Shown here piece by piece: positions 26,167 to 60,091 of a stretch of 64,000 nucleotides of DNA. The stretch covers positions 3,578,437 to 3,642,436 of the forward strand of contig OU342636.1 in assembly GCA_910589415.1 (NCBI GenBank), read 5' to 3'. The notes under the pieces are model-generated. The model saw nothing but the letters and a program-made list of their open reading frames with translations. It was not told the origin of the DNA and made no database searches. The position numbers and the translations under genes are program-made. Position 1 is the stretch's first letter; every line of letters begins with the position of its first letter. The DNA is from Malachius bipustulatus. Lineage: Eukaryota > Arthropoda > Insecta > Coleoptera > Melyridae.

Positions 26167-27541
26167 ATGGTCTTAACATTTCAGAGCTGTACTCTGAAGA
26201 TATCATCTCAGCAATCACGCATCTCATGTGTGTCTTGCAAGAAACCCTTTCATGCCTCTTGTATTAATCTTACTGCCAAAGATATAGCTTTCTTTCATGA
26301 GTCTGGGAACAAGTTCTCCTGCTCAGCTTGTCAGTTAGAGGATAGACGACGTCGCTCTTCAATCAAAGCAGTGAGCGCAACAACTGCTTCCTCCTCTATC
26401 TCCTCCGCTTCAAAATCGTTCAAACCAGTGAGTGCAACATCTGCTGCTTCCTCTATCTCCTCGGCTTCTAAATGTAGTTCTATGAAATCAGTGAGCGGAG
26501 CTACGGCTCCCTCTTCTATCTCCTCAGCTTCAAATTGTAATTTATGCGACATCGTTGATCCATCCATAAGGCTCATTTACTGTACTGGTCCTTGTGAAGG
26601 GAGTTTTCATCCAGAATACATCTCACTTTCGGCTTCAGATGTGGAATTATTAAACCATAACAAAAATGTACGCTTTACCTGCAACCTTTGTATAAACAAG
26701 AAGATAGCCTCTCCAGGAATCCACCTAATCTCTGACTACGTCAGGAACTATCGACACATCTCTAAAACTATTAAAGACAGATATTCTGGCTGATTTCGAG
26801 AAGCGTATCATTGATCTTACTAAGAGCGTTTCATTAAACTTTGAAAGAAACATTCGTCCGATTATTAAAGAGGTCGTCTCTGAGACAACGAAGCCTGCCT
26901 CCATCCCTCCTATGCCCATTGAACCTTATGCAAAAGTTGTTAAGAATAAGGCTAAGCCGGCTGTCGTAATTCAGCCAAAAAATATGCAGTCCAACTCTGT
27001 TACCAGGTCGGATATTCTTCACAGCGTAGATCCATTGTCCTCTGGAGTTCAAATTACTAAAGTTAAGAACCTCAAGAATGGTGGGGTACTTGTTGGATGC
27101 AGCACTCCTGGAGATACTGAAGCCTTCAAGAACTCGGTTGGAAGTAAGTTAGCTGATAGATACGACGTAAAGGAGTTAAAGGGTGTCAACCCTAGAGTTC
27201 GTTTGGTGGGTGTTGATGTCAAGCTTGATGGTGACACCTTCAGGATAGGTTACAATAGCTGTTTGGTCTATGATGCTACTGATGTGACAAGATGCTTCAG
27301 ATGCTCCAGGTTTAATCACACCTCCAAGAGTTGCACTGCTGATCTGTGTTGTCCTAAATGTGCTGGCGCCCATGATGTTAAAGATTGCTCTGCCACTACG
27401 CTTCGCTGTATTAATTGTGCCTCTTTGGGGGGTGATGGCTGGACTGTTCTGGATGCGGGGCATGCTGCCTGGGATACTAAATGTACTGCTTATGAAAACG
27501 AAAAGAAAACCCTTCGAGATAGTATTCTATCCGTTCAATAG
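26167..27541 (+). pseudogene. LINE ORF1: two PHD-like fingers plus gag-type zinc knuckles
   Basis: The first frame (26167-26793) begins with a PHD-like finger (CVSCKKPFHASC...CSAC), then three imperfect ~22-residue Ser/Ala repeats built around SSISSASK (26350-26535), then a second PHD-like finger (CNLCDIVDPS...CTGPC...CNLC). A shift near 26720-26790 moves reading to the second frame, with a Glu/Lys-rich segment and three C-terminal zinc knuckles: CFRCSRFNHTSKSC, CPKCAGAHDVKDC and a degenerate CINC. ORF1 proteins of this type coat the element RNA. One or more indels break the original frame of about 455 codons. Confidence 0.7.
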
Positions 27542-27677: not shown

Positions 27678-30256
27678 ATGTATCAAAATGTTAGAAGCCT
27701 CAATAATAAGTTCATTGACTTTTTCAATAACACACTCATCTCAGATTATGATTTTGTTGTTCTGAGCGAGACTTGGCTTATACCCAGTACTAACGACGTT
27801 ATGTTCATTGATACATCCAGATAGTGTATCGTGGAGATAGAGATCTTGCATCTGTGAAAATGTCCAGGGGAGGGAGGAGGTGTGCTGATTGCTGTGGACT
27901 CTAAATTTAATTCTGCCATCCTGCCTTTGAACAACATGTCTAACATTCCTAATATAGATATGCTATGCGTCTGCATTCCGCCTAACTTATCATCCGATAT
28001 TCTTCGTTCCTTCTGTGACCTACTTGTGGACTTAGACATTTTATACTCTAGCCACACTATTCTAGTTGGGGACTTTAACTGTCCAAGCCTTTCTCTTGCT
28101 TCCTCACCGTTAGATAATACAACCGCGTACTTCTGTTAAACTTTTGAAACTCTTAATTTGACTCAGTATAATTCTGTGTCTAATCACAACGGACATATCT
28201 TGGACCGTGTTCTGGCTGACTTTCCTCAGACTGCTCTTAGAGCGGAGGATCCTCTGGTACGAGAGGATAACCACCATCCTGCATTAACTATTGAGTTTTA
28301 CAGCCGCGGGGAACCCTCTGCCTCGCTGCCTTAAGGCTCCCGTTCCATCATTTAACTTTAAACAATGTTAAACAGTGCCGTTGATCTTTTTGTTCCGAAA
28401 ACTAAACCCTCATCTAATCATAGGTATCCCCCGTGGTTTACTCAGTCGATTATATCTGATTTAAAGAGAAAGACCGCTCTTCGTGTATCTTTTAGCGTTC
28501 TGGTAACCAGCACACACTTACTCAGTTTAAGAGTCTGAGAACTTCTCTTAAACGCGACATTAAACAATCTTATCACAACTTTATCAGTCAGATTGAAAGG
28601 AATCTTAATCATAATCCTAAAAAGTTTTGGACTTTTGTGAATAATCGTCGTGGCTCTTCTGGTCTTCCCAATACTATGAACTATAACGGGAGTACATTCA
28701 CTGATTTGCCTCAGGTGCTGAACTCCTTTTGTGACTTTTTCAGCCAGTCATTCACTCTATAATGCCCTGAAATCAGTTAAGGACTCCAATACCGCAGGTC
28801 CAGATGGCATTCCCTCTTTCCTGCTACGAGACTGCGCTTCTAATCTCTCATTCCCTCTCATGAAAATTTTTAATTTAGCTCTTTCTTCTGCTCAATGTTC
28901 GTTCTGTTGGAAGTTATCTAGGGTGATACCTGTCTTCAAAAAAGGAGACAGGAGTCAGATCACCAACTATAGACAAATCTGCATTCTACCTAACTTTGGA
29001 AAGGTGTTTGAGGAGGTTATATATAGGGTGCTCTATCCTCATGTCAGATTTATTTTATCATCATGTCAACATGGCTTCATGAGTGGTTGCTCGACGATCA
29101 CTAATCTGTTCACCTTTACACAATATACCTCTGAAGCTTTGAATTCTCACTCTCAAGTGGATGTGGTCTATATGGATTTCTCTAAGGCTTTTGATAGAGT
29201 TGACCATATTTTACTTCTCTCCAAACTTTCCTCATTTGGCCTCTCCGATTCCCTTATAGATTTTCTCTCTAATTACTTCACTCACAGATGTCAATATGTT
29301 TCCTATGGTGGTTCCAACTCCCCTGAATACCCTGTTACTTCTGGTGTCTTTCAGGGTTCTAAATTGGGTCCAATCTTTTTCAATTTATTTATAAATGACA
29401 TTGTTGAGGGTATTGAGGTCGATCACCTATTATATGCTGACGATTTGAAGATCTTTTGTAAGATTCATTCATTAGATGATTGTTTAAGACTTCAACGTTC
29501 CATCCATCGTATCAACATTTGGTGCAATAAAAATTTACTTCCTCTTAATACCTCCAAATGCTATACCATGTCTTTCAGTTTTAAACATACTCTGACCCAG
29601 TTTTCATACACTATTGATGGACACCCTATTGAGAAGGTTACGGAATTCATGGATATATTAATATTTGATCCCAAGCTCTCATTCGGCAAACACATTGACT
29701 ATGCAGCCACCTCTGCATTTAGATTGCTAGGCTTTATTATTCGCAATTCAATAGATTTCGGAAACATTCTTACCCTCATAACTCTCTTTCGTGCTATTGT
29801 CTTGCCTAGGCTGGAGTATGGCAGTGTGATTTGGTCTCCCGGTTACAGATGTCACCTTCTCAGCCTGGCACACGTCGTTTTTTAAAATTCCTATATCGTA
29901 AGAAGACGGGCTCATATCCTGTACAGGGCTACCCTGAGTCTGAACTTCTGATAGAATTTGATTTTAGAAGTTTGGAGGACAGGCGTGCATATATGTTTGT
30001 GCGCTTTCTTTGGGGACTGTTAAATGGACATATCGATTCTCCTTTCATCCTGTCCCAAATCTCCCTTAATGTTCCTCAGGTTGCTCTTAGGCATCAACAG
30101 TTCTTGAGGGTGAGAACCCCGAGGACTAACACTCTTGTCTTCCCTCCACTGCATCGAATGTGTGACTGTGCTAATCAGCATGCTGACAGCCTCGATGTTT
30201 TCTTTTGCAGTGCTCAGCAGATTAAAAGATATTTCTTAAGTTTGGACTCAGTCTGA
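27678..30256 (+). pseudogene. LINE ORF2: endonuclease and reverse transcriptase, broken
   Basis: An ATG at 27678 starts MYQNVRSLNNKF, the endonuclease N-terminus, so this element has a conventional ORF2 start. LSETWL, GGGVLIAV and VGDFNCP follow, in shifted frames, to about 28340. The longest open stretch (28731-29885) is the RT: SNTAGPDGIPSFLL, KKGDRSQITNYR, YMDFSKAFDRVDH, SGVFQGSKLGP (usually VPQGS) and LLYADDLKIF. The C-terminal part continues at 29831-30256 in another frame. The catalytic YADD is kept, but the ORF is interrupted several times. Confidence 0.8.
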
Positions 30257-54275: not shown

Positions 54276-55025
54276 ATGAATTGCATTGGGTGCAGCTGTA
54301 GTGGACTTCTGTTTGGTTGTGATAGCTGCAAGAGAATGTTTTGCCAACAGTGTGCGGATCTGACTAGCTCCGAAGTGAAATGCCTGCAGCTAAAGAAAAG
54401 GGTCCTGAAGTTCCTGTGCGGGGACTGTGAGAAGTCATTGCTGCAGGTTCCAGTACTTATAAAAAGCATTAAGGTTTTGGAGGGGAGGTTTGATCAGTTT
54501 TTGCAGGATACGGCCGGACCACCGAGCGCTGCTGCTCAGGATCGGACTGGGCACGGGACAGATGCTGGAGTGGAGACCGTGCTGATCGAGCTGGCAGAGA
54601 GAGATAAGAGGAAAAATAATCTGATGCTCTTCGGGGTTCCTGAACAAAGTGTAGACTCGAATGTCACGGATAGAAAGGCTGTGTGTAATGTTCTGGGAAG
54701 GCTGGATGAGTCAGCTGTGGATGCGGTCAGCCATGTCACTAGAATCGGGAAGCTGTCGGGAGAGGGGGGCCGTCCTCGTCCGATCAAGGTGGCTATGAAG
54801 GATGAGGGCAGTGTTCTGAGGATACTGAAGGAGGCGAGAAAGCTTAGGACATTTCCTGAGTGTGCTGAGATATATGTGTCGGCTGACAGGACCCCTAGTC
54901 AGATTAGATACTATAGGGGTATCAGAGAGCAGTTGAAGGATCGATTGGAGAATGGCGAGAAGAATTTGCGAATTGGATATGATAAAGGTGTGCCAAAAAT
55001 AATCCAGGGAAAGAGTTTAAACTAA
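54276..55025 (+). CDS. LINE ORF1 protein: zinc finger plus RRM-like domain
   Basis: 249 codons from the ATG at 54276. An upstream in-frame ATG at 54192 would add 28 hydrophobic residues; 54276 is preferred because the zinc motif follows at once. Residues 1-51 contain CIGCSCSG, CDSCKRMFCQQC and CGDC, a PHD/RING-like cysteine cluster. A central linker rich in Gly and Ala follows. KRKNNLMLFGVPE and VTRIGK...RPIKVAMKD suit an RRM-like fold as in other LINE ORF1 proteins. The C-terminus has SADRTPSQIRYYR and LRIGYDKGVPKII. It is expected to bind the element RNA. It ends ...GKSLN-TAA, and the last codons form a frameshift heptamer. Confidence 0.8.
   Translation: MNCIGCSCSGLLFGCDSCKRMFCQQCADLTSSEVKCLQLKKRVLKFLCGDCEKSLLQVPVLIKSIKVLEGRFDQFLQDTAGPPSAAAQDRTGHGTDAGVETVLIELAERDKRKNNLMLFGVPEQSVDSNVTDRKAVCNVLGRLDESAVDAVSHVTRIGKLSGEGGRPRPIKVAMKDEGSVLRILKEARKLRTFPECAEIYVSADRTPSQIRYYRGIREQLKDRLENGEKNLRIGYDKGVPKIIQGKSLN
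55016..55022 (+). promoter_or_regulatory. candidate -1 ribosomal frameshift slippery site T TTA AAC
   Basis: The last sense codons of ORF1 are AGT TTA AAC followed by TAA (55023-55025). In the ORF1 frame this is X XXY YYZ with X=T, Y=A, Z=C, one of the most efficient known -1 slippery heptamers. Slipping back one base makes the next codon CTA (55022-55024), which is the open ORF2 frame. By eye I see only weak stems in the next 60 bases, so a stimulatory structure is not established. Confidence 0.6.
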
Positions 55026-57799
55026 GCAAGTTGTCCAACGGAGGCCAGGGTGTCTTGTGCTACTTCCAGAATACTCGTGGTCTTCGCACAAAATTTGATG
55101 ATTTTCTTGTGGCAGTGTCGGCCTCCGAGTTGGATGTAATCGCAGTCGCAGAGTCCTGGCTATCGGAGGATGTGTCCAGTGGTGAATTCTTCGCTAGTGA
55201 CTTTGTGGTGTACAGATGCGATCGTCGGAGTGATGTACTCTTACGTGGGGGAGGAGTATTGTTGGGGATTCGAGATACGATTCCTAGTGAGGCAATGGAT
55301 TTATCCGTGATAAACTCTCAGGTGACATCTATTGATGTGGTTGGTTGTCGTTGTACAGTGTTTAATGTTAAGGTTAATATATTCTCAGTTTATGTGCCTC
55401 CTACTACAAGTGTGAAGGATTACGAGCTGTTCATAGACCTACTCGAGCATGTTAATGTGGGTGCCCGGCATGTGCTGATCATGGGTGATTTCAATGTTCC
55501 TAGCTTCAATCAGATTGGGGTGAGGGATGCTAGATCGGTGTTGATCTCAGGTTTCATGGAGTTCATGGGATTGAGACAGGAGAACAGTGTCGTTAATGAG
55601 AGAGGGAGACTTTTGGATCTGATAATTACTGATCTTCCATGTGATGTACAGCATAGTGACTTTCCCTTGGTCGGGGAGGATGTGCATCACCCCGCATTGT
55701 CTGTGTCTATTGCTGTTCCTAATTGTCGTGCTGTGGACTTCGCTAGGAGAAAGGAGACTAAAGTATATAACTTTAGAAGGGCAGATTTTGTGGCGTTGTA
55801 TGATGAGCTGGCGGCAATGGACTGGAATATCTTGGACGATAGTGGGTGTGTGGGTGACATGTGCTCTGTGTTTTATTCGTCGTTGTATGAGATATTCGAT
55901 AGGCATGTTCCGGTATACAGGGGAGGTCGACGGGGGGATCATTATCCGAAGTGGTATACCCTGGAGATCATCTCTAATATTAAACTCAAGTCCAAGTACC
56001 GCAGTTACTATAGGAAGTCACAGTCTGTAAATTATTTAAATGAGTTCAGACGCCTTCGGTCTATGGTTAAGTCACAGATTTCGGTTGCGTATCGTAATTA
56101 TATTCGTGAGGTGGAGCTAGGTGTGCAAGGTGATCCGACTAAATTTTGGACATTTATACAGAACAAGAGGAAGGGAAGTAGGATTCCCGGGGTAGTGAAG
56201 CATGGCTCGGATACATTTGCCACCCCGCAAGCGGTGGTGGATGGATTCGCGGATTTTTTTGGCAGTGTGTATGTCGGTCGGAGTGATGGGAATGATGTCG
56301 GTGATTTGTCTCGGGAATACGGGTTGTCGGGTCCTCATATCGACGTTTCTGATGTAGGTGAGTGTGAAGTTATGAGGGCCATCAGTAGGTTGAAAAATGG
56401 AATGACTGCTGGTGTCGATCAGGTTCCATCATTCCTGGTAAAGGACTGTGCTGGAGTGCTGCTCGTGCCGTTGACAAAAATATTTAACGCCGTTCTGGGT
56501 TCCTCCACTTTTCCGGCAGTCTGGAAAAGAGCAAGATTGTGTCCAATACTTAAGAGCGGCGATGCAGGGGATGTCCAGAATTATAGGGCTGTGGCAATAC
56601 TGCCGAACTTTGCAAAGGCGTTGGAGATGGTTTTGTTCTCCCGTATATATCCATTGTTGAATAGTCAGATCTCAGCGTGTCAGCATGGCTTTATGGATAG
56701 GAGGTCAACCGTAACAAACTTGGCGTGTATAACACAGTTCATTTCGGAGACCATTGATGCAGGTGGACAGGCTGACGTGATATACACTGATTTCTCTAAA
56801 GCTTTTGATCGAATTGACCACTCGATACTCGTTAGAAAGTGTCAGGCCTTCGGTTTTAGCGATTCTCTGGCTGCTTTGGTGGCATCGTATCTCTCCGGCA
56901 GAAGGTGCTATGTAAAATATAATGGGTTTGAATCCAAGTGGTTCAAGGTAACATCCGGTGTGCCACAGGGATCAAATTTGGGGCCCTTGTTATTTGTCAT
57001 ATTTATCAACGACTTGCCATCTTCCGTAGGTTGTGATGTTTTGCTTTTCGCTGATGATCTCAAGCTGTTTCTGAGAGTGAACTGTGTGGATGATTGTGAG
57101 AGGTTGCAGAGTGGTTTGAATGTGGTGACCGATTGGTGCGATAGGAACAAGTTACATCTGAACAGGGAAAAATGCAGGGTTATGACGTACACAAGGAAGT
57201 TACAGCCCGTCGTGTTCCCATACCGGGTTGGCACTGACGCTCTGACCCGTTGTGCTTCATTTAGGGACTTGGGCGTTTTGTTTGATGCTCAGTTGTCTTT
57301 TGTCGAGCATATAGATGCTGTGTGTATGAAGGCAATGAGAATGCTAGGATTCCTCGTCAGGAATACTAGAATGTTTACGAGTGTGAAGGCACTAAAGTGT
57401 CTGTACTGCTCACTTGTCAGAAGTCGGTTAGAGTATGCTTCACTGATCTGGTATCCCCTTTATAAGGTTCATGTATGGAGGGTGGAACGAGTCCAGAGAA
57501 AGTTCTTAAAGTACCTGTCATTCCGAGTGCGTGGCTGGTATCCTGAGAGAGGCTATGAGCAGCGAGTTTTACTTTTAGATTTCAATATGTTGAGTTTGAA
57601 TGTCCGCAGAGTCCTAGCTGCTCTTAGGTTTTTATATCTACTGTTGCACAATGGGATAGATTGTCCAGCCTTGTTGAGCTGCATAAGCTTTCAGGTGCCC
57701 AGAGTGTCATCGCGTGCTAGCCTTCCCTTTCGATGCCCCAATGCCAGATCGAATGTGATGGTGAAATCACCAGTATTTGTAATGTGCGATCCAGGATAG
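55022..57799 (+). CDS. LINE ORF2: endonuclease plus reverse transcriptase, no AUG start
   Basis: The frame is open from 54986 (just after an in-frame TAA) to TAG at 57797-57799. Counting TTG 55031 as residue 1, the apurinic-type endonuclease has QN (Asn14), AES (Glu41), GGG 73-75, MGDFN (Asp153, Asn155) and the VHHP end near 220. The RT has DAGDVQNYR, YTDFSKAFDRIDH (585-597), SGVPQGSNLGP and FADD 673-676. The first Met codon is residue 89, inside the endonuclease and past two catalytic residues, so AUG initiation would destroy it. A -1 shift at 55016-55022 gives a complete ORF1-ORF2 fusion. The C-terminus stops about 25 residues before that of the related LINE at 59678. Confidence 0.85.
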   Translation, partial: LSKLSNGGQGVLCYFQNTRGLRTKFDDFLVAVSASELDVIAVAESWLSEDVSSGEFFASDFVVYRCDRRSDVLLRGGGVLLGIRDTIPSEAMDLSVINSQVTSIDVVGCRCTVFNVKVNIFSVYVPPTTSVKDYELFIDLLEHVNVGARHVLIMGDFNVPSFNQIGVRDARSVLISGFMEFMGLRQENSVVNERGRLLDLIITDLPCDVQHSDFPLVGEDVHHPALSVSIAVPNCRAVDFARRKETKVYNFRRADFVALYDELAAMDWNILDDSGCVGDMCSVFYSSLYEIFDRHVPVYRGGRRGDHYPKWYTLEIISNIKLKSKYRSYYRKSQSVNYLNEFRRLRSMVKSQISVAYRNYIREVELGVQGDPTKFWTFIQNKRKGSRIPGVVKHGSDTFATPQAVVDGFADFFGSVYVGRSDGNDVGDLSREYGLSGPHIDVSDVGECEVMRAISRLKNGMTAGVDQVPSFLVKDCAGVLLVPLTKIFNAVLGSSTFPAVWKRARLCPILKSGDAGDVQNYRAVAILPNFAKALEMVLFSRIYPLLNSQISACQHGFMDRRSTVTNLACITQFISETIDAGGQADVIYTDFSKAFDRIDHSILVRKCQAFGFSDSLAALVASYLSGRRCYVKYNGFESKWFKVTSGVPQGSNLGPLLFVIFINDLPSSVGCDVLLFADDLKLFLRVNCVDDCERLQSGLNVVTDWCDRNKLHLNREKCRVMTYTRKLQPVVFPYRVGTDALTRCASFRDLGVLFDAQLSFVEHIDAVCMKAMRMLGFLVRNTRMFTSVKALKCLYCSLVRSRLEYASLIWYPLYKVHVWRVERVQRKFLKYLSFRVRGWYPERGYEQRVLLLDFNMLSLNVRRVLAALRFLYLLLHNGIDCPALLSCISFQVPRVSSRASLPFRCPNARSNVMVKSPVFVMCDPG

Positions 57800-57983
57800 C
57801 GGCTGGGTATTTTGCGGATATTTAATTTAATAGTTTCTAGGGATAAGGGTTGTATGTATCACATAGACTTATACTGTTTTTTTTTGTTACGTTTATTTAT
57901 TTTTTAATTTAGTTTACTATATCTTTGTTAATATTGTGCTTTGTCCAGTAATTGGATTTCTATAATCTGTTGGACAATAAAGA

Positions 57984-58013
<30 letters not shown>

Positions 58014-58015
<2 letters not shown>

Positions 58016-59678
58016 GAACTTTCAGACTCCCAGGAGATTGTTGATGCTTTTTCTTTCTTTTTTAGCTCCACATTTCTCGCTTCCTCCTCTGCTAGATCGG
58101 AAAATAACGATGCAGGTGATGTAAATATGCCTTCGTTAAATATCACTTGTTTCACTGAAGATGATTATTTTGATGCATTAAGAGGGATTAAACCATCTCC
58201 AACCTGCGGTCATGTTACCATCACCAAATCCCCTGTTTCTTAGTTAAGGGATGGAGAGGAGTCTTAGTTAAACCTTTAATTTTTATATTTAATATGTGCT
58301 TAACACGCGGTACCTTCCCGGCTTGTTGGAAATTGACCAGAGTGTGTCCGGTTTTTAAAAGCGGAGACAAATCCGACATTTCAAATTATCGCCAATATCA
58401 CTGTTATCAACGTTTTCCAAGATATTTGAGATTATGTTATACAAACAAATCTTCAACCATGTACGGTGTTATATATCACCCTGTCAGCATGGATTTGTTG
58501 AACACAGGTCTACTGTGACTAACCTGGTGCAGTTTACTCCGGTTGTTTCTGACGTATTGGATGGGAGGGGACAGGTTGATGCTGTTTACACAGATTTTTC
58601 CAAGGCGTTCGATCGTATTGACCACCAGATGATCATTACAAAATTAAATAATTTCGGCTTGTCTAATAGTTTAATCTCGTTGTTTGATTCTTATCTTCAC
58701 AATAGACAGCTTTACGTTTCATATAATGGATTTAATTCATCCGTTTACATTGCATCATCTGGTGTTCCACAGGGATCGAATCTTGGCCCTCTTCTATTCC
58801 TCTTATTTATTAATGATCTACCTAATAAAATAAGCAGTAACATCCTGATGTTCGCCGATGATGTTAAAATTTTTCGTCCGATATTCTCTATAATTGATGC
58901 AGAGGCTCTCCAGACTGATTTGAATATCCTACTTGAGTGGTGTGCTGGGAATAAACTGTCCTTAAATGTCAATAAATGCAAAGTAATGTCATACTTTCGC
59001 ATCAAAGATCCAATTTTATTCCCTTACGTTATTGCCGATAGTCAACTGACTCGTGCGAATTTGACAAAAGATTTGGGAGTACTCTTCGATACCGAGTTGA
59101 CCTTTTCTCAGCACGTGATAGAGGTATCTTCTTCGTCGATCCGAATGCTTGGATTTATTATTCGCAACACTAAATCATTTCAGAGTGTTCAATGTTTGAA
59201 GACGTTATATTACTCTTTTGTCAGATCTAAGTTGGAGTATGCAATGATGGTATGGTTTCCATTGTATAGCAATAAAGTTTCTATGCTTGAAAGAGTACAA
59301 AGGAAGTTTCTCAAATTCTTATGGTTCAAGAGATTTCATCGATACCCATATCAGGGCTTCCCATATGAAATCCTTATGCGGACGTTTGAGTTAGAATCTC
59401 TTAGCAACAGACACAGAACCAGTTGCCTGATATTTTTGTTTAAACTATTTCACGGCTTGATTGACTCTCCATGGATCTTACAGAGCCTTGATTTCTCTAT
59501 TAATCAACATAATAGTAGATCTCAGTGTTTATTTCGGCTACAAAATCCAAAAACTAATATGATGTTGAAGTCACCATTATTCAAGACCTGTTCTTATTTT
59601 AATGAAATAAGTCACTCGTGTGATGTGTTTTTTCAACCATTCAACTCTTACAAGAGATCTATTATAAACTTATGGTAA
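58014..59678 (+). pseudogene. LINE ORF2 reverse transcriptase (mostly open)
   Basis: 58014-58433 is broken by stops and shifts (ELSDSQEIVDAF, TFPACWKLTRVCPVFKSGDK, ISNYRQ). From 58434 to 59678 one frame of 414 codons is open: QHGFVEHRSTVTNLVQF, YTDFSKAFDRIDH, SGVPQGSNLGPLLFLLFIND, ILMFADDVKIF (catalytic FADD kept), and a full C-terminus with VQRKFLKFLWF and CDVFFQPFNSYKRS. The RT core is intact, but the N-terminal part is not. It resembles the ORF2 ending at 57799 and that at 27678-30256. Confidence 0.8.
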
Positions 59679-60029
59679 GAAATCTTGATCTGGGTGTTTT
59701 TGTTGTTGTTTATCAATTTATAATATATAGTATTATTATTGTGTTATTTAGGCTACTGTGGTATAGGTACTTTATTTATTTATTTAATATAGTTTATTTC
59801 TATATGATACTTGGGTAATATAATATTGCTTGTGTATCTGGTCAATCGAATCGACATTTATTGGGACGTATGTCCTCATTTTTTCCATTATTTCTTTAAA
59901 TTCTTAGTTCTGTATTATTTTGTTTCTTTGTGTTTTTTTTATATGTTATTAATGTTAAATAGGTATTTAAGAAAACAAACATTGTTTTGTCCAGTAAATA
60001 GATATCATAATCTGTTGGGCAAATAAACG

Positions 60030-60091
<62 letters not shown>

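What the first reader, a model, noticed from the sequence alone, without database searches (positions are those of the whole stretch)
54986..55100. LINE ORF2 apparently expressed by -1 frameshifting at T TTA AAC on the ORF1 stop
Seen: ORF1 ends AGT TTA AAC TAA; ORF2 is in the -1 frame; the frames overlap at 54986-55025; ORF2 has no Met codon until residue 89, after the endonuclease residues Asn14 and Glu41. Known: U UUA AAC is among the strongest -1 slippery heptamers in eukaryotic translation. LINEs studied in detail mostly use reinitiation or an AUG for ORF2. Inference: this element makes an ORF1-ORF2 fusion by frameshifting, as retroviruses do. The related LINE at 25.8-30.5 kb has an ordinary ATG for ORF2 (27678), so the mechanism may have arisen within the group.
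Basis: partly seen in the sequence, partly recalled or inferred. Interest (0 to 1): 0.85.

Follow-up and report, generated by a model that had tools for sequence, protein, structure and literature searches.

The report
LINE makes its polymerase by frameshifting
A jumping gene of the LINE type appears to make its copying enzyme the way retroviruses do, by making ribosomes slip back one letter at a fixed seven-letter site at the end of its first gene; most relatives read in the same genome keep such a site, and some carry other known stop-bypass signals instead, which our literature searches did not find described for LINEs.

Summary
ORF1 (54276-55025) ends T TTA AAC TAA, ORF2 (open 54986-57799) is in the -1 frame, and its first AUG follows the endonuclease motifs. 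I read 120 junctions found in this genome through ORF1 protein (7 of them the element's own family). 99 of 120 have X XXA AAC in phase within one codon of the ORF1 stop: TTTAAAC 91, AAAAAAC 7, GGGAAAC 1; by cluster, 28 of 29. The stop varies, the heptamer does not, though synonymous sites further on are saturated. Sixty loci reached through ORF2 gave more such families, and nine clusters with ORF1 and ORF2 in one frame across a stop in a readthrough context (UAG CAA YYA; UGA CGG, CUA or CUG), and one with CCC UAG and ORF2 at +1. Of 18 database ORF1 homologues, 10 end in Leu-Asn. Best explanation: programmed -1 frameshifting, widespread in this LINE group, not newly arisen. Against: nothing measured, no shared downstream stem, and one 11-locus family with A ACA AAC. 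Ten literature searches found no such report.

The parts
54276..55025 (+). ORF1, 249 aa, Cys-rich N-terminus (PHD-like in a relative), ends ...KSLN stop
   Evidence: relatives found by protein search; PHD hit just below cut-off in relative L047
55016..55022 (+). slippery heptamer T TTA AAC in phase with ORF1
   Evidence: X XXA AAC in 99 of 120 loci
55023..55025 (+). ORF1 stop TAA directly after the heptamer; in 27 of 29 clusters the stop is adjacent (TAA, TAG or TGA), in 2 one sense codon intervenes
54986..57799 (+). ORF2 open frame (-1); after the shift it would be read from CTA at 55022; endonuclease plus reverse transcriptase
   Evidence: Pfam RVT_1 E 8.9e-31, Exo_endo_phos E 4.6e-4 (below cut-off)
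55034..55036 (+). TCC at the place where most related families have CCC (RNA-level conserved element, 8 or 11 nt after the heptamer); degenerate here
55295..55297 (+). first in-frame ATG of ORF2, after the endonuclease Asn and Glu motifs; in four sister copies the first ATG is 458 nt after the stop instead of 272
57984..58013 (+). (ATT)n 3' tail of the element, preceded by AATAAAG at 57976
27539..27541 (+). ORF1 stop TAG (context CAA TAG CCA CTA) of the related, decayed LINE at 25.8-30.5 kb, followed by 50 open codons in the same frame

Best explanation
The element makes two products from one RNA: ORF1 protein by normal termination at UAA, and a 1174-residue ORF1-ORF2 fusion by programmed -1 ribosomal frameshifting. 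With UUA in the P site and AAC in the A site of U UUA AAC, both tRNAs re-pair on UUU AAA, and translation goes on at CUA AGC AAG into the endonuclease-RT. The sequence anatomy, the phase, the lack of an early AUG and the conservation are shown. That ribosomes shift here, at what rate, and that the fusion is the active enzyme are inferred. The downstream stimulator is unknown; a conserved CCC 8 or 11 nt after the heptamer is a candidate in most relatives (TCC in the window copy).
For: (1) Of 120 loci found by ORF1 protein similarity (7 of the own family), 99 have X XXA AAC in phase within one codon of the stop; 28 of 29 clusters. (2) Changes keep the tandem-slip rule: TTTAAAC in 25 clusters, AAAAAAC in 2, GGGAAAC in 1. 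A review names U_UUA_AAC, A_AAA_AAC and G_GGA_AAC among the most shift-prone heptamers (PMC5009743, passages). (3) The stop identity varies (14 TAA, 9 TAG, 4 TGA of 27 adjacent ones). (4) The last heptamer base is C in 21 of 21 families, although T would be synonymous in both frames in 20 of them; Asn codons elsewhere are AAC in 29 of 111 (ORF1) and 49 of 144 (ORF2); other conserved residues show saturated synonymous sites. (5) The endonuclease QN motif lies in the -1 frame in 111 of 115 readable loci, and that frame is open for at least 40 codons in 105 of 115. 17 of 21 aligned families have no AUG before the endonuclease motif (strings). (6) 10 of 18 database ORF1 homologues looked at end exactly in Leu-Asn. 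(7) The nine clusters with ORF2 in frame 0 have no in-phase X XXA AAC within 12 codons of the ORF1 stop and have readthrough contexts instead.
Against: No shared stem-loop downstream: mean folding z +0.28, +0.39 and +0.44 over 29 representatives, no lower than control windows; the window's own family gives -1.5, -0.4 and -2.3 for 60, 90 and 120 nt, so a stem particular to it is possible but not established. No pairing partner was found for the conserved CCC, and pseudoknots were not modelled by a dedicated program. One multi-copy family (11 loci) has A ACA AAC, not a canonical heptamer, yet has both ORFs and no early AUG. L195 has ORF2 at -1 without the heptamer. 4 of 21 aligned families have an AUG before the endonuclease motif. 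Clusters are related, so counts are not independent events. No expression data.
Confidence: 0.93

Rival explanations
1. ORF2 is made by termination-reinitiation near the ORF1 stop, as in SART1 or LINE-1, using a non-AUG codon such as the TTG at 55031 or a later AUG.
For: Reinitiation or a similar termination-dependent start is the route described for SART1 and LINE-1 (PMC2881922 and PMC5972666, passages). ORF1 stop and ORF2 are adjacent. 4 of 21 families have an AUG before the endonuclease motif, and two related families outside the set have an AUG between ORF1 stop and endonuclease (L157, L171).
Against: No AUG overlaps or closely follows the stop in the ORF2 frame of the window element. It does not explain an X XXA AAC conserved in phase, its swaps TTT/AAA/GGG, the -1 frame, or the invariance of a doubly synonymous base.
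Confidence: 0.04
2. The heptamer is conserved for the protein (Leu-Asn at the ORF1 C-terminus, Phe-Lys-Leu in ORF2) and not for decoding.
For: Three of four aligned ORF1s end LN and the fourth TN after a conserved GVPKIV-like stretch, and 10 of 18 database homologues end in LN.
Against: The protein changes (LN, KN, GN; FKL, KKL, GKL) while X XXA AAC stays. In TTTAAAC clusters Leu is TTA, although TTA is 30 of 209 Leu codons elsewhere in ORF1; Asn is AAC in 21 of 21 families against 29 of 111.
Confidence: 0.02
3. Transcriptional slippage (polymerase stuttering) supplies the frame change in the RNA.
For: Some relatives have A-runs of 6 or more (AAAAAAC).
Against: TTTAAAC has only runs of three, and the required final C and the phase are not explained.
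Confidence: 0.01

Closest known systems
Retroviral and coronaviral -1 programmed ribosomal frameshifting (gag-pol; IBV U_UUA_AAC)
   Same: Same heptamer class X XXA AAC, same phase, downstream polymerase in the -1 frame (heptamers: PMC5009743, passages).
   Different: Non-LTR element with endonuclease-RT; no Gag, protease or integrase family hit; stop usually directly after the heptamer; no shared stem-loop found downstream.
SART1 and LINE-1 termination-reinitiation
   Same: Bicistronic LINE RNA, ORF2 after ORF1.
   Different: Those start ORF2 anew after termination (PMC2881922, PMC5972666, passages); here there is no nearby AUG but a slippery heptamer.
Jockey superfamily LINEs (CR1, L2, Jockey lineages)
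   Same: Endonuclease plus RT in ORF2, and a Cys-rich, PHD-like ORF1 N-terminus in a relative, as described for CR1 and L2 lineages (PMC4120745, passages).
   Different: That paper has 0 occurrences of frameshift, overlap, fused or readthrough in its main text. Exact clade not assigned here.
HeT-A and TART telomeric LINEs; trypanosome L1Tc 2A
   Same: Non-LTR elements with unusual decoding.
   Different: HeT-A's gag needs a frameshift and it has no RT; TART is presumed to start its polyprotein at an AUG (PMC5009743, passages); trypanosome elements use StopGo (PMC5972666, passages).
Viral stop-codon readthrough type I (UAG CAR YYA) and type II (UGA CGG / UGA CUA)
   Same: Related LINE families here have these contexts between in-frame ORF1 and ORF2 (motif definitions PMC3542737, passages).
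   Different: Listed there for RNA viruses; these are LINEs. Type II stem-loops not detected. One cluster has UGA CUG, a near variant.

Membership tests
programmed -1 ribosomal frameshift site | X XXY YYZ heptamer in phase with the upstream frame | tested here: met
   55016-55022
programmed -1 ribosomal frameshift site | downstream ORF overlapping in the -1 frame and lacking an early start codon of its own | tested here: met
programmed -1 ribosomal frameshift site | site conserved between diverged relatives beyond protein constraint | tested here: met
   28 of 29 clusters; synonymous test
programmed -1 ribosomal frameshift site | downstream stimulatory stem-loop or pseudoknot about 5-9 nt away | tested here: inconclusive
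   no shared unusual folding; conserved CCC without partner; no pseudoknot program used
programmed -1 ribosomal frameshift site | measured frameshifting above background | not testable with these tools
   needs reporter assay or proteomics
Jockey superfamily LINE (CR1/L2/Jockey) | APE endonuclease and reverse transcriptase in ORF2 | tested here: met
   (RT above cut-off; endonuclease E 4.6e-4, below Pfam's cut-off) and conserved endonuclease columns
Jockey superfamily LINE (CR1/L2/Jockey) | ORF1 with PHD and RRM-type domains | tested here: inconclusive
   no Pfam family above cut-off in the window ORF1; PHD E 9e-5 just below cut-off in relative L047, none in L031 or L039
Jockey superfamily LINE (CR1/L2/Jockey) | RT phylogeny within the superfamily | not tested
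   no reference LINE RT set was used
retroviral Gag-Pol | gag, protease, integrase, LTRs | tested here: not met
   one search finds endonuclease and RT and no gag, protease or integrase family; element ends in (ATT)n
UAAUG stop-start reinitiation (SART1 type) | AUG overlapping or next to the ORF1 stop in the ORF2 frame | tested here: not met
   first ORF2 AUG is 272 nt after the stop
type I readthrough (relatives only) | in-frame UAG CAR YYA between the ORFs | tested here: met
   4 clusters; 7 of 7 further copies; readthrough itself not measured
type II readthrough (relatives only) | in-frame UGA CGG or UGA CUA, usually with a 3' stem-loop | tested here: inconclusive
   UGA CGG 3 clusters, UGA CUA 1, UGA CUG 1; 6 of 7 further copies; no unusual folding in 5 representatives

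The most novel reading that the evidence does not exclude
A whole group of LINEs makes an ORF1-ORF2 fusion by recoding, as retroviruses make Gag-Pol. Within the group the route has switched repeatedly between -1 frameshifting (X XXA AAC), type I readthrough (UAG CAR YYA), type II readthrough (UGA CGG/CUA), perhaps +1 frameshifting at CCC UAG, and occasionally AUG starts. If so, a fixed low ratio of fusion to ORF1 protein is what selection holds, and the signal that sets it is interchangeable.
Probability: 0.78. Interest if true: 0.9.

Novelty: new variant of a known kind. Interest (0 to 1): 0.84.

Why it matters
How LINEs make ORF2 protein, and at what ratio to ORF1 protein, has been worked out in few elements, and the reviews seen here describe reinitiation after termination. 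A group with conserved, canonical recoding signals would show that non-LTR elements converged on the retroviral solution, imply an ORF1-ORF2 fusion enzyme, and give many natural variants in one genome (three slippery heptamers, two readthrough classes, a possible +1 site) with which ratio and stimulator can be tested directly. It also means that gene finders and repeat annotators that ask for an ORF2 start codon will truncate such elements.

Tried and rejected
Downstream stem-loops: folding 60, 90 and 120 nt after the heptamer in 29 representatives gave mean z +0.28, +0.39, +0.44 against +0.23, +0.33 for two control windows, so no shared stem; single families went as low as -3.2 (L059, 90 nt). 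A pairing partner for the conserved CCC was sought downstream (23 families) and upstream (12 families), and none exceeded a shuffled segment clearly. Stems after nine readthrough stops and the +1 site: z between -1.5 and +1.5 in 10 families. A relative in viral contigs: none. L067, a copy with ORF1 and ORF2 in one 1286-codon frame, was considered as a natural fusion family. It is one copy of a TTTAAAC family with an upstream indel, and rejected as such.

Rows dropped before counts. One search listed 150 hits (of 729 candidates): 120 were read (30, 20, 70) and 30 were not fetched. The 120 include the window copy and six further loci of its own family. Of the 120, five had no readable junction (L053, L066, L095, L098, L113) and were left out of the clusters (115 loci). 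Three more (L051, L067, L137) carry the heptamer but an upstream frame-breaking mutation, and two (L094, L143) have a mutated heptamer. Ten of the 115 have a -1 frame open for fewer than 40 codons, and four show no endonuclease motif in it. The clusters are single-linkage at 80%; a few are near neighbours (F16/F26, F19/F27). The 60 loci were picked by me from the 300 hits to sample different clusters, mostly with long open ORF2, so they are not a random sample; the output was cut in the middle (part of L173 to L175), and these three were printed again. Of the 62 clusters, 11 are 'other': L157 and L171 with an AUG between ORF1 stop and endonuclease, L195 (-1 without heptamer), the pair L177/L196 (TTTAAAC TAG in L196), L203 (decayed copy with AAAAAAC), and six truncated, decayed or unresolved ones (L167, L185, L186, L193, L198, L202). 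In one search, L232 has another upstream part and no UGA there, and is the miss in '6 of 7'. In one search the printed count '14 of 21' for early AUG is a script error (families without any Met were counted); the printed strings show 4 with a Met. Of 27 database ORF1 homologues listed I looked at 18; nine weaker ones were not opened.

Literature: ten searches over open-access full text showed no report of -1 frameshifting or readthrough for LINE ORF2. I saw their listings (capped at 15 to 25 papers where more matched) and starts of abstracts, and passages of six papers. Subscription papers and Repbase notes were not searchable. Kojima 2005 (SART1) is not held and is known to me only through two reviews. 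That +1 shifts occur at CCC before a stop in other genes is recalled and rests on no call.
Full report
What is there. The window element has ORF1 54276-55025 (249 aa) and ORF2 open 54986-57799 (937 codons) in the -1 frame; ORF1 ends AGT TTA AAC TAA, so that T TTA AAC (55016-55022) is in phase and the stop follows at once. ORF2 has endonuclease and RT. Its first AUG is at 55295, after the YFQN and AESW motifs. If both tRNAs slip back one base, translation continues ...KSLN-LSKLSNGGQGVLC..., a fusion of 1174 residues. The window lies in a 544 Mb genome held as G000. The best-scoring hits that carry a species name are from beetles (ORF2 in Callosobruchus chinensis; ORF1 in Molorchus minor).

Copies of the same family. 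A DNA search found six places, the window included, that are 99-100% identical over the whole 1331 bases, plus pieces. ORF2 of these matches residues 1-935 or more without stops in three, with one stop in a fourth, with seven stops in a fifth, and only to residue 555 in the sixth. All seven junctions of this family that were read have TTTAAAC TAA. The first ORF2 AUG is 272 nt after the stop in two of them and 458 nt in four; the seventh, a partial copy, has none in its 485 open nt.

Diverged families. The ORF1 protein finds 150 places (150 of 729 candidates scored), down to 28% identity. I read 120 junctions. 99 of 120 have X XXA AAC in phase at the ORF1 stop (94) or one codon before it (5): TTTAAAC 91, AAAAAAC 7, GGGAAAC 1. 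Eleven, all one family, have AACAAAC. Ten are broken or mutated. Clustered at 80% identity, 115 readable loci make 29 clusters: TTTAAAC 25, AAAAAAC 2, GGGAAAC 1, AACAAAC 1. In 27 the stop is adjacent (TAA 14, TAG 9, TGA 4, one cluster mixed and counted as TAA); in 2 one sense codon intervenes. The endonuclease motif lies in the -1 frame in 111 of the 115, and that frame is open for at least 40 codons in 105. Flanking columns are variable, while AAAC is invariant in 27 of 27 representatives and XXX stays homopolymeric except in the AACAAAC family.

Selection acts on RNA, not only on protein. In 20 of 21 families a T in place of the final C would be synonymous in both frames (AAC/AAT in ORF1, CTR/TTR in ORF2), yet C is found in 21 of 21. 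Asn is AAC in only 29 of 111 ORF1 codons and 49 of 144 ORF2 codons nearby. Phe TTT (18 of 18) and Lys AAA (21 of 21) of the heptamer are fixed, whereas conserved Tyr, Gln, Asn, Gly, Leu, Glu and Asp further on use all their codons. If the 20 families were independent the chance would be about 2e-12; they are related, so this is only a guide.

A second conserved RNA element. 8 or 11 nt after the heptamer most families have CCC. Pro codons in the first seven codons from the site are CCC in 22 of 27, against 1 of 22 further on in the same stretches, and against 7 of 73 and 18 of 108 in ORF2 and ORF1. The window copy has TCC there. I found no pairing partner and no shared stem, so its role is open.

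Relatives reached without ORF1. Two searches with ORF2 N-termini gave 300 hits; I read 60 chosen to sample new clusters. Many have -1 sites again, now mostly A AAA AAC, with the stop adjacent or one codon on; one TTTAAAC family has its stop six codons on. Over all 175 loci clustered together there are 62 clusters: 24 TTTAAAC, 15 AAAAAAC, 1 GGGAAAC, 1 AACAAAC, 9 in-frame with a readthrough context, 1 with CCC TAG, 11 other. The nine in-frame clusters show UAG CAA UUA (2), UAG CAA CUA, UAG CAA UCA, UGA CGG (3), UGA CUA and UGA CUG. All but UGA CUG are listed in, or covered by the motifs of, a review of viral readthrough (UAG CAR YYA; UGA CGG or CUA; PMC3542737, passages). The classification used these contexts, but among the other clusters printed I saw no intact in-frame pair with another context. 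None of the in-frame loci has an in-phase X XXA AAC within 12 codons of the stop; L180, L182 and L184 have an out-of-phase AAAAAAC 42 nt upstream. In further copies the contexts hold: 7 of 7 UAG copies, 6 of 7 UGA copies (the seventh has another upstream part), and 4 of 4 copies of a family with CTG CCC TAG whose ORF2 is in the +1 frame. Two related families have an AUG between the ORF1 stop and the endonuclease (L157, L171).

Evolution. On a tree of 41 endonuclease N-termini (122 columns, 11 of 38 inner branches well supported) the six modes need at least 9 changes, and -1 sites occur on both sides of the midpoint split (99/96). Well-supported branches alone force only 3 changes for the -1 label, and the four UAG families do not group together but are not firmly separated. 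The number of switches is therefore approximate. It does show that the -1 site is not an innovation of the window element.

Other species. Of 18 ORF1 homologues from public databases that I looked at, 10 end exactly in Leu-Asn, as TTA AAC stop would give; P0108 ends KNT, as A AAA AAC ACA stop gives in L183; the others end EN, VN or NLNM, or have AKNQ/PKNQ followed by an extension; two lack the C-terminal part.

The comparator in the window. The LINE at 25.8-30.5 kb is a decayed relative (RT 43% identical to the window ORF2). Its ORF1 runs through HAAWDTKC...SILSVQ, then TAG CCA CTA (27539), and then 50 open codons in the same frame up to and across a frame change just before YQNVRSLNNKF, where the ATG at 27678 lies. 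Its nearest sampled family has UAG CAA UUA (68% over 47 aa). It is thus not a clean AUG-using outgroup.

Against. Shifting has not been measured. No shared stimulator structure is found; the window family's own folding z is -1.5, -0.4 and -2.3 for 60, 90 and 120 nt. The AACAAAC family (11 loci) lacks the canonical P-site half although it has no early AUG. L195 is at -1 without the heptamer. Four of 21 aligned families have an AUG before the endonuclease motif, so reinitiation could add to ORF2 output there.

Verdict. It is a known decoding mechanism in a kind of element for which ten searches did not show it described (listings and abstract starts seen; passages of PMC5009743, PMC2881922, PMC5972666, PMC3542737, PMC4120745 and PMC3905857 read). 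The most interesting part is the mix of recoding contexts in one LINE group.

Noticed in passing
L152, L153, L168, L180, L182, L184, L191, L192, L163 and copies L224-L230: Related LINE families have ORF1 and ORF2 in one frame with UAG CAA UUA, UAG CAA CUA or UAG CAA UCA between them (type I readthrough context).
   Followed up: partly
L144-L151, L200 and copies L231, L233-L237: Related families whose ORF1 ends near WPxxIAIKKFIHFKNK have in-frame UGA CGG, UGA CUA or UGA CUG before ORF2 (type II readthrough context).
   Followed up: partly
L169, L170, L172, L238-L241: A multi-copy family has ORF1 ending CTG CCC TAG with ORF2 in the +1 frame and no early AUG, a possible +1 frameshift site.
   Followed up: partly
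8 or 11 nt after the heptamer in most -1 families: A CCC triplet is conserved at the RNA level (22 of 27 Pro codons near, 1 of 22 far) without a visible pairing partner.
   Followed up: partly
L039 family (11 loci): Multi-copy family with A ACA AAC TAA AUG at the junction, ORF2 at -1 and no early in-frame AUG: an exception to the canonical heptamer.
   Followed up: no
L195 (G000:C6:13271596-13271986): ORF2 at -1 without X XXA AAC; the ORF1 end has a CCC CCC run further upstream.
   Followed up: no
window 57932-60080: A 5'-truncated relative (RT 48% identical to the window ORF2 over 399 aa) lies directly downstream, with its own (ATT)n tail.
   Followed up: no
window 27678: The supposed ORF2 ATG of the 25.8-30.5 kb LINE lies at a frame change in a decayed copy.
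   Followed up: yes
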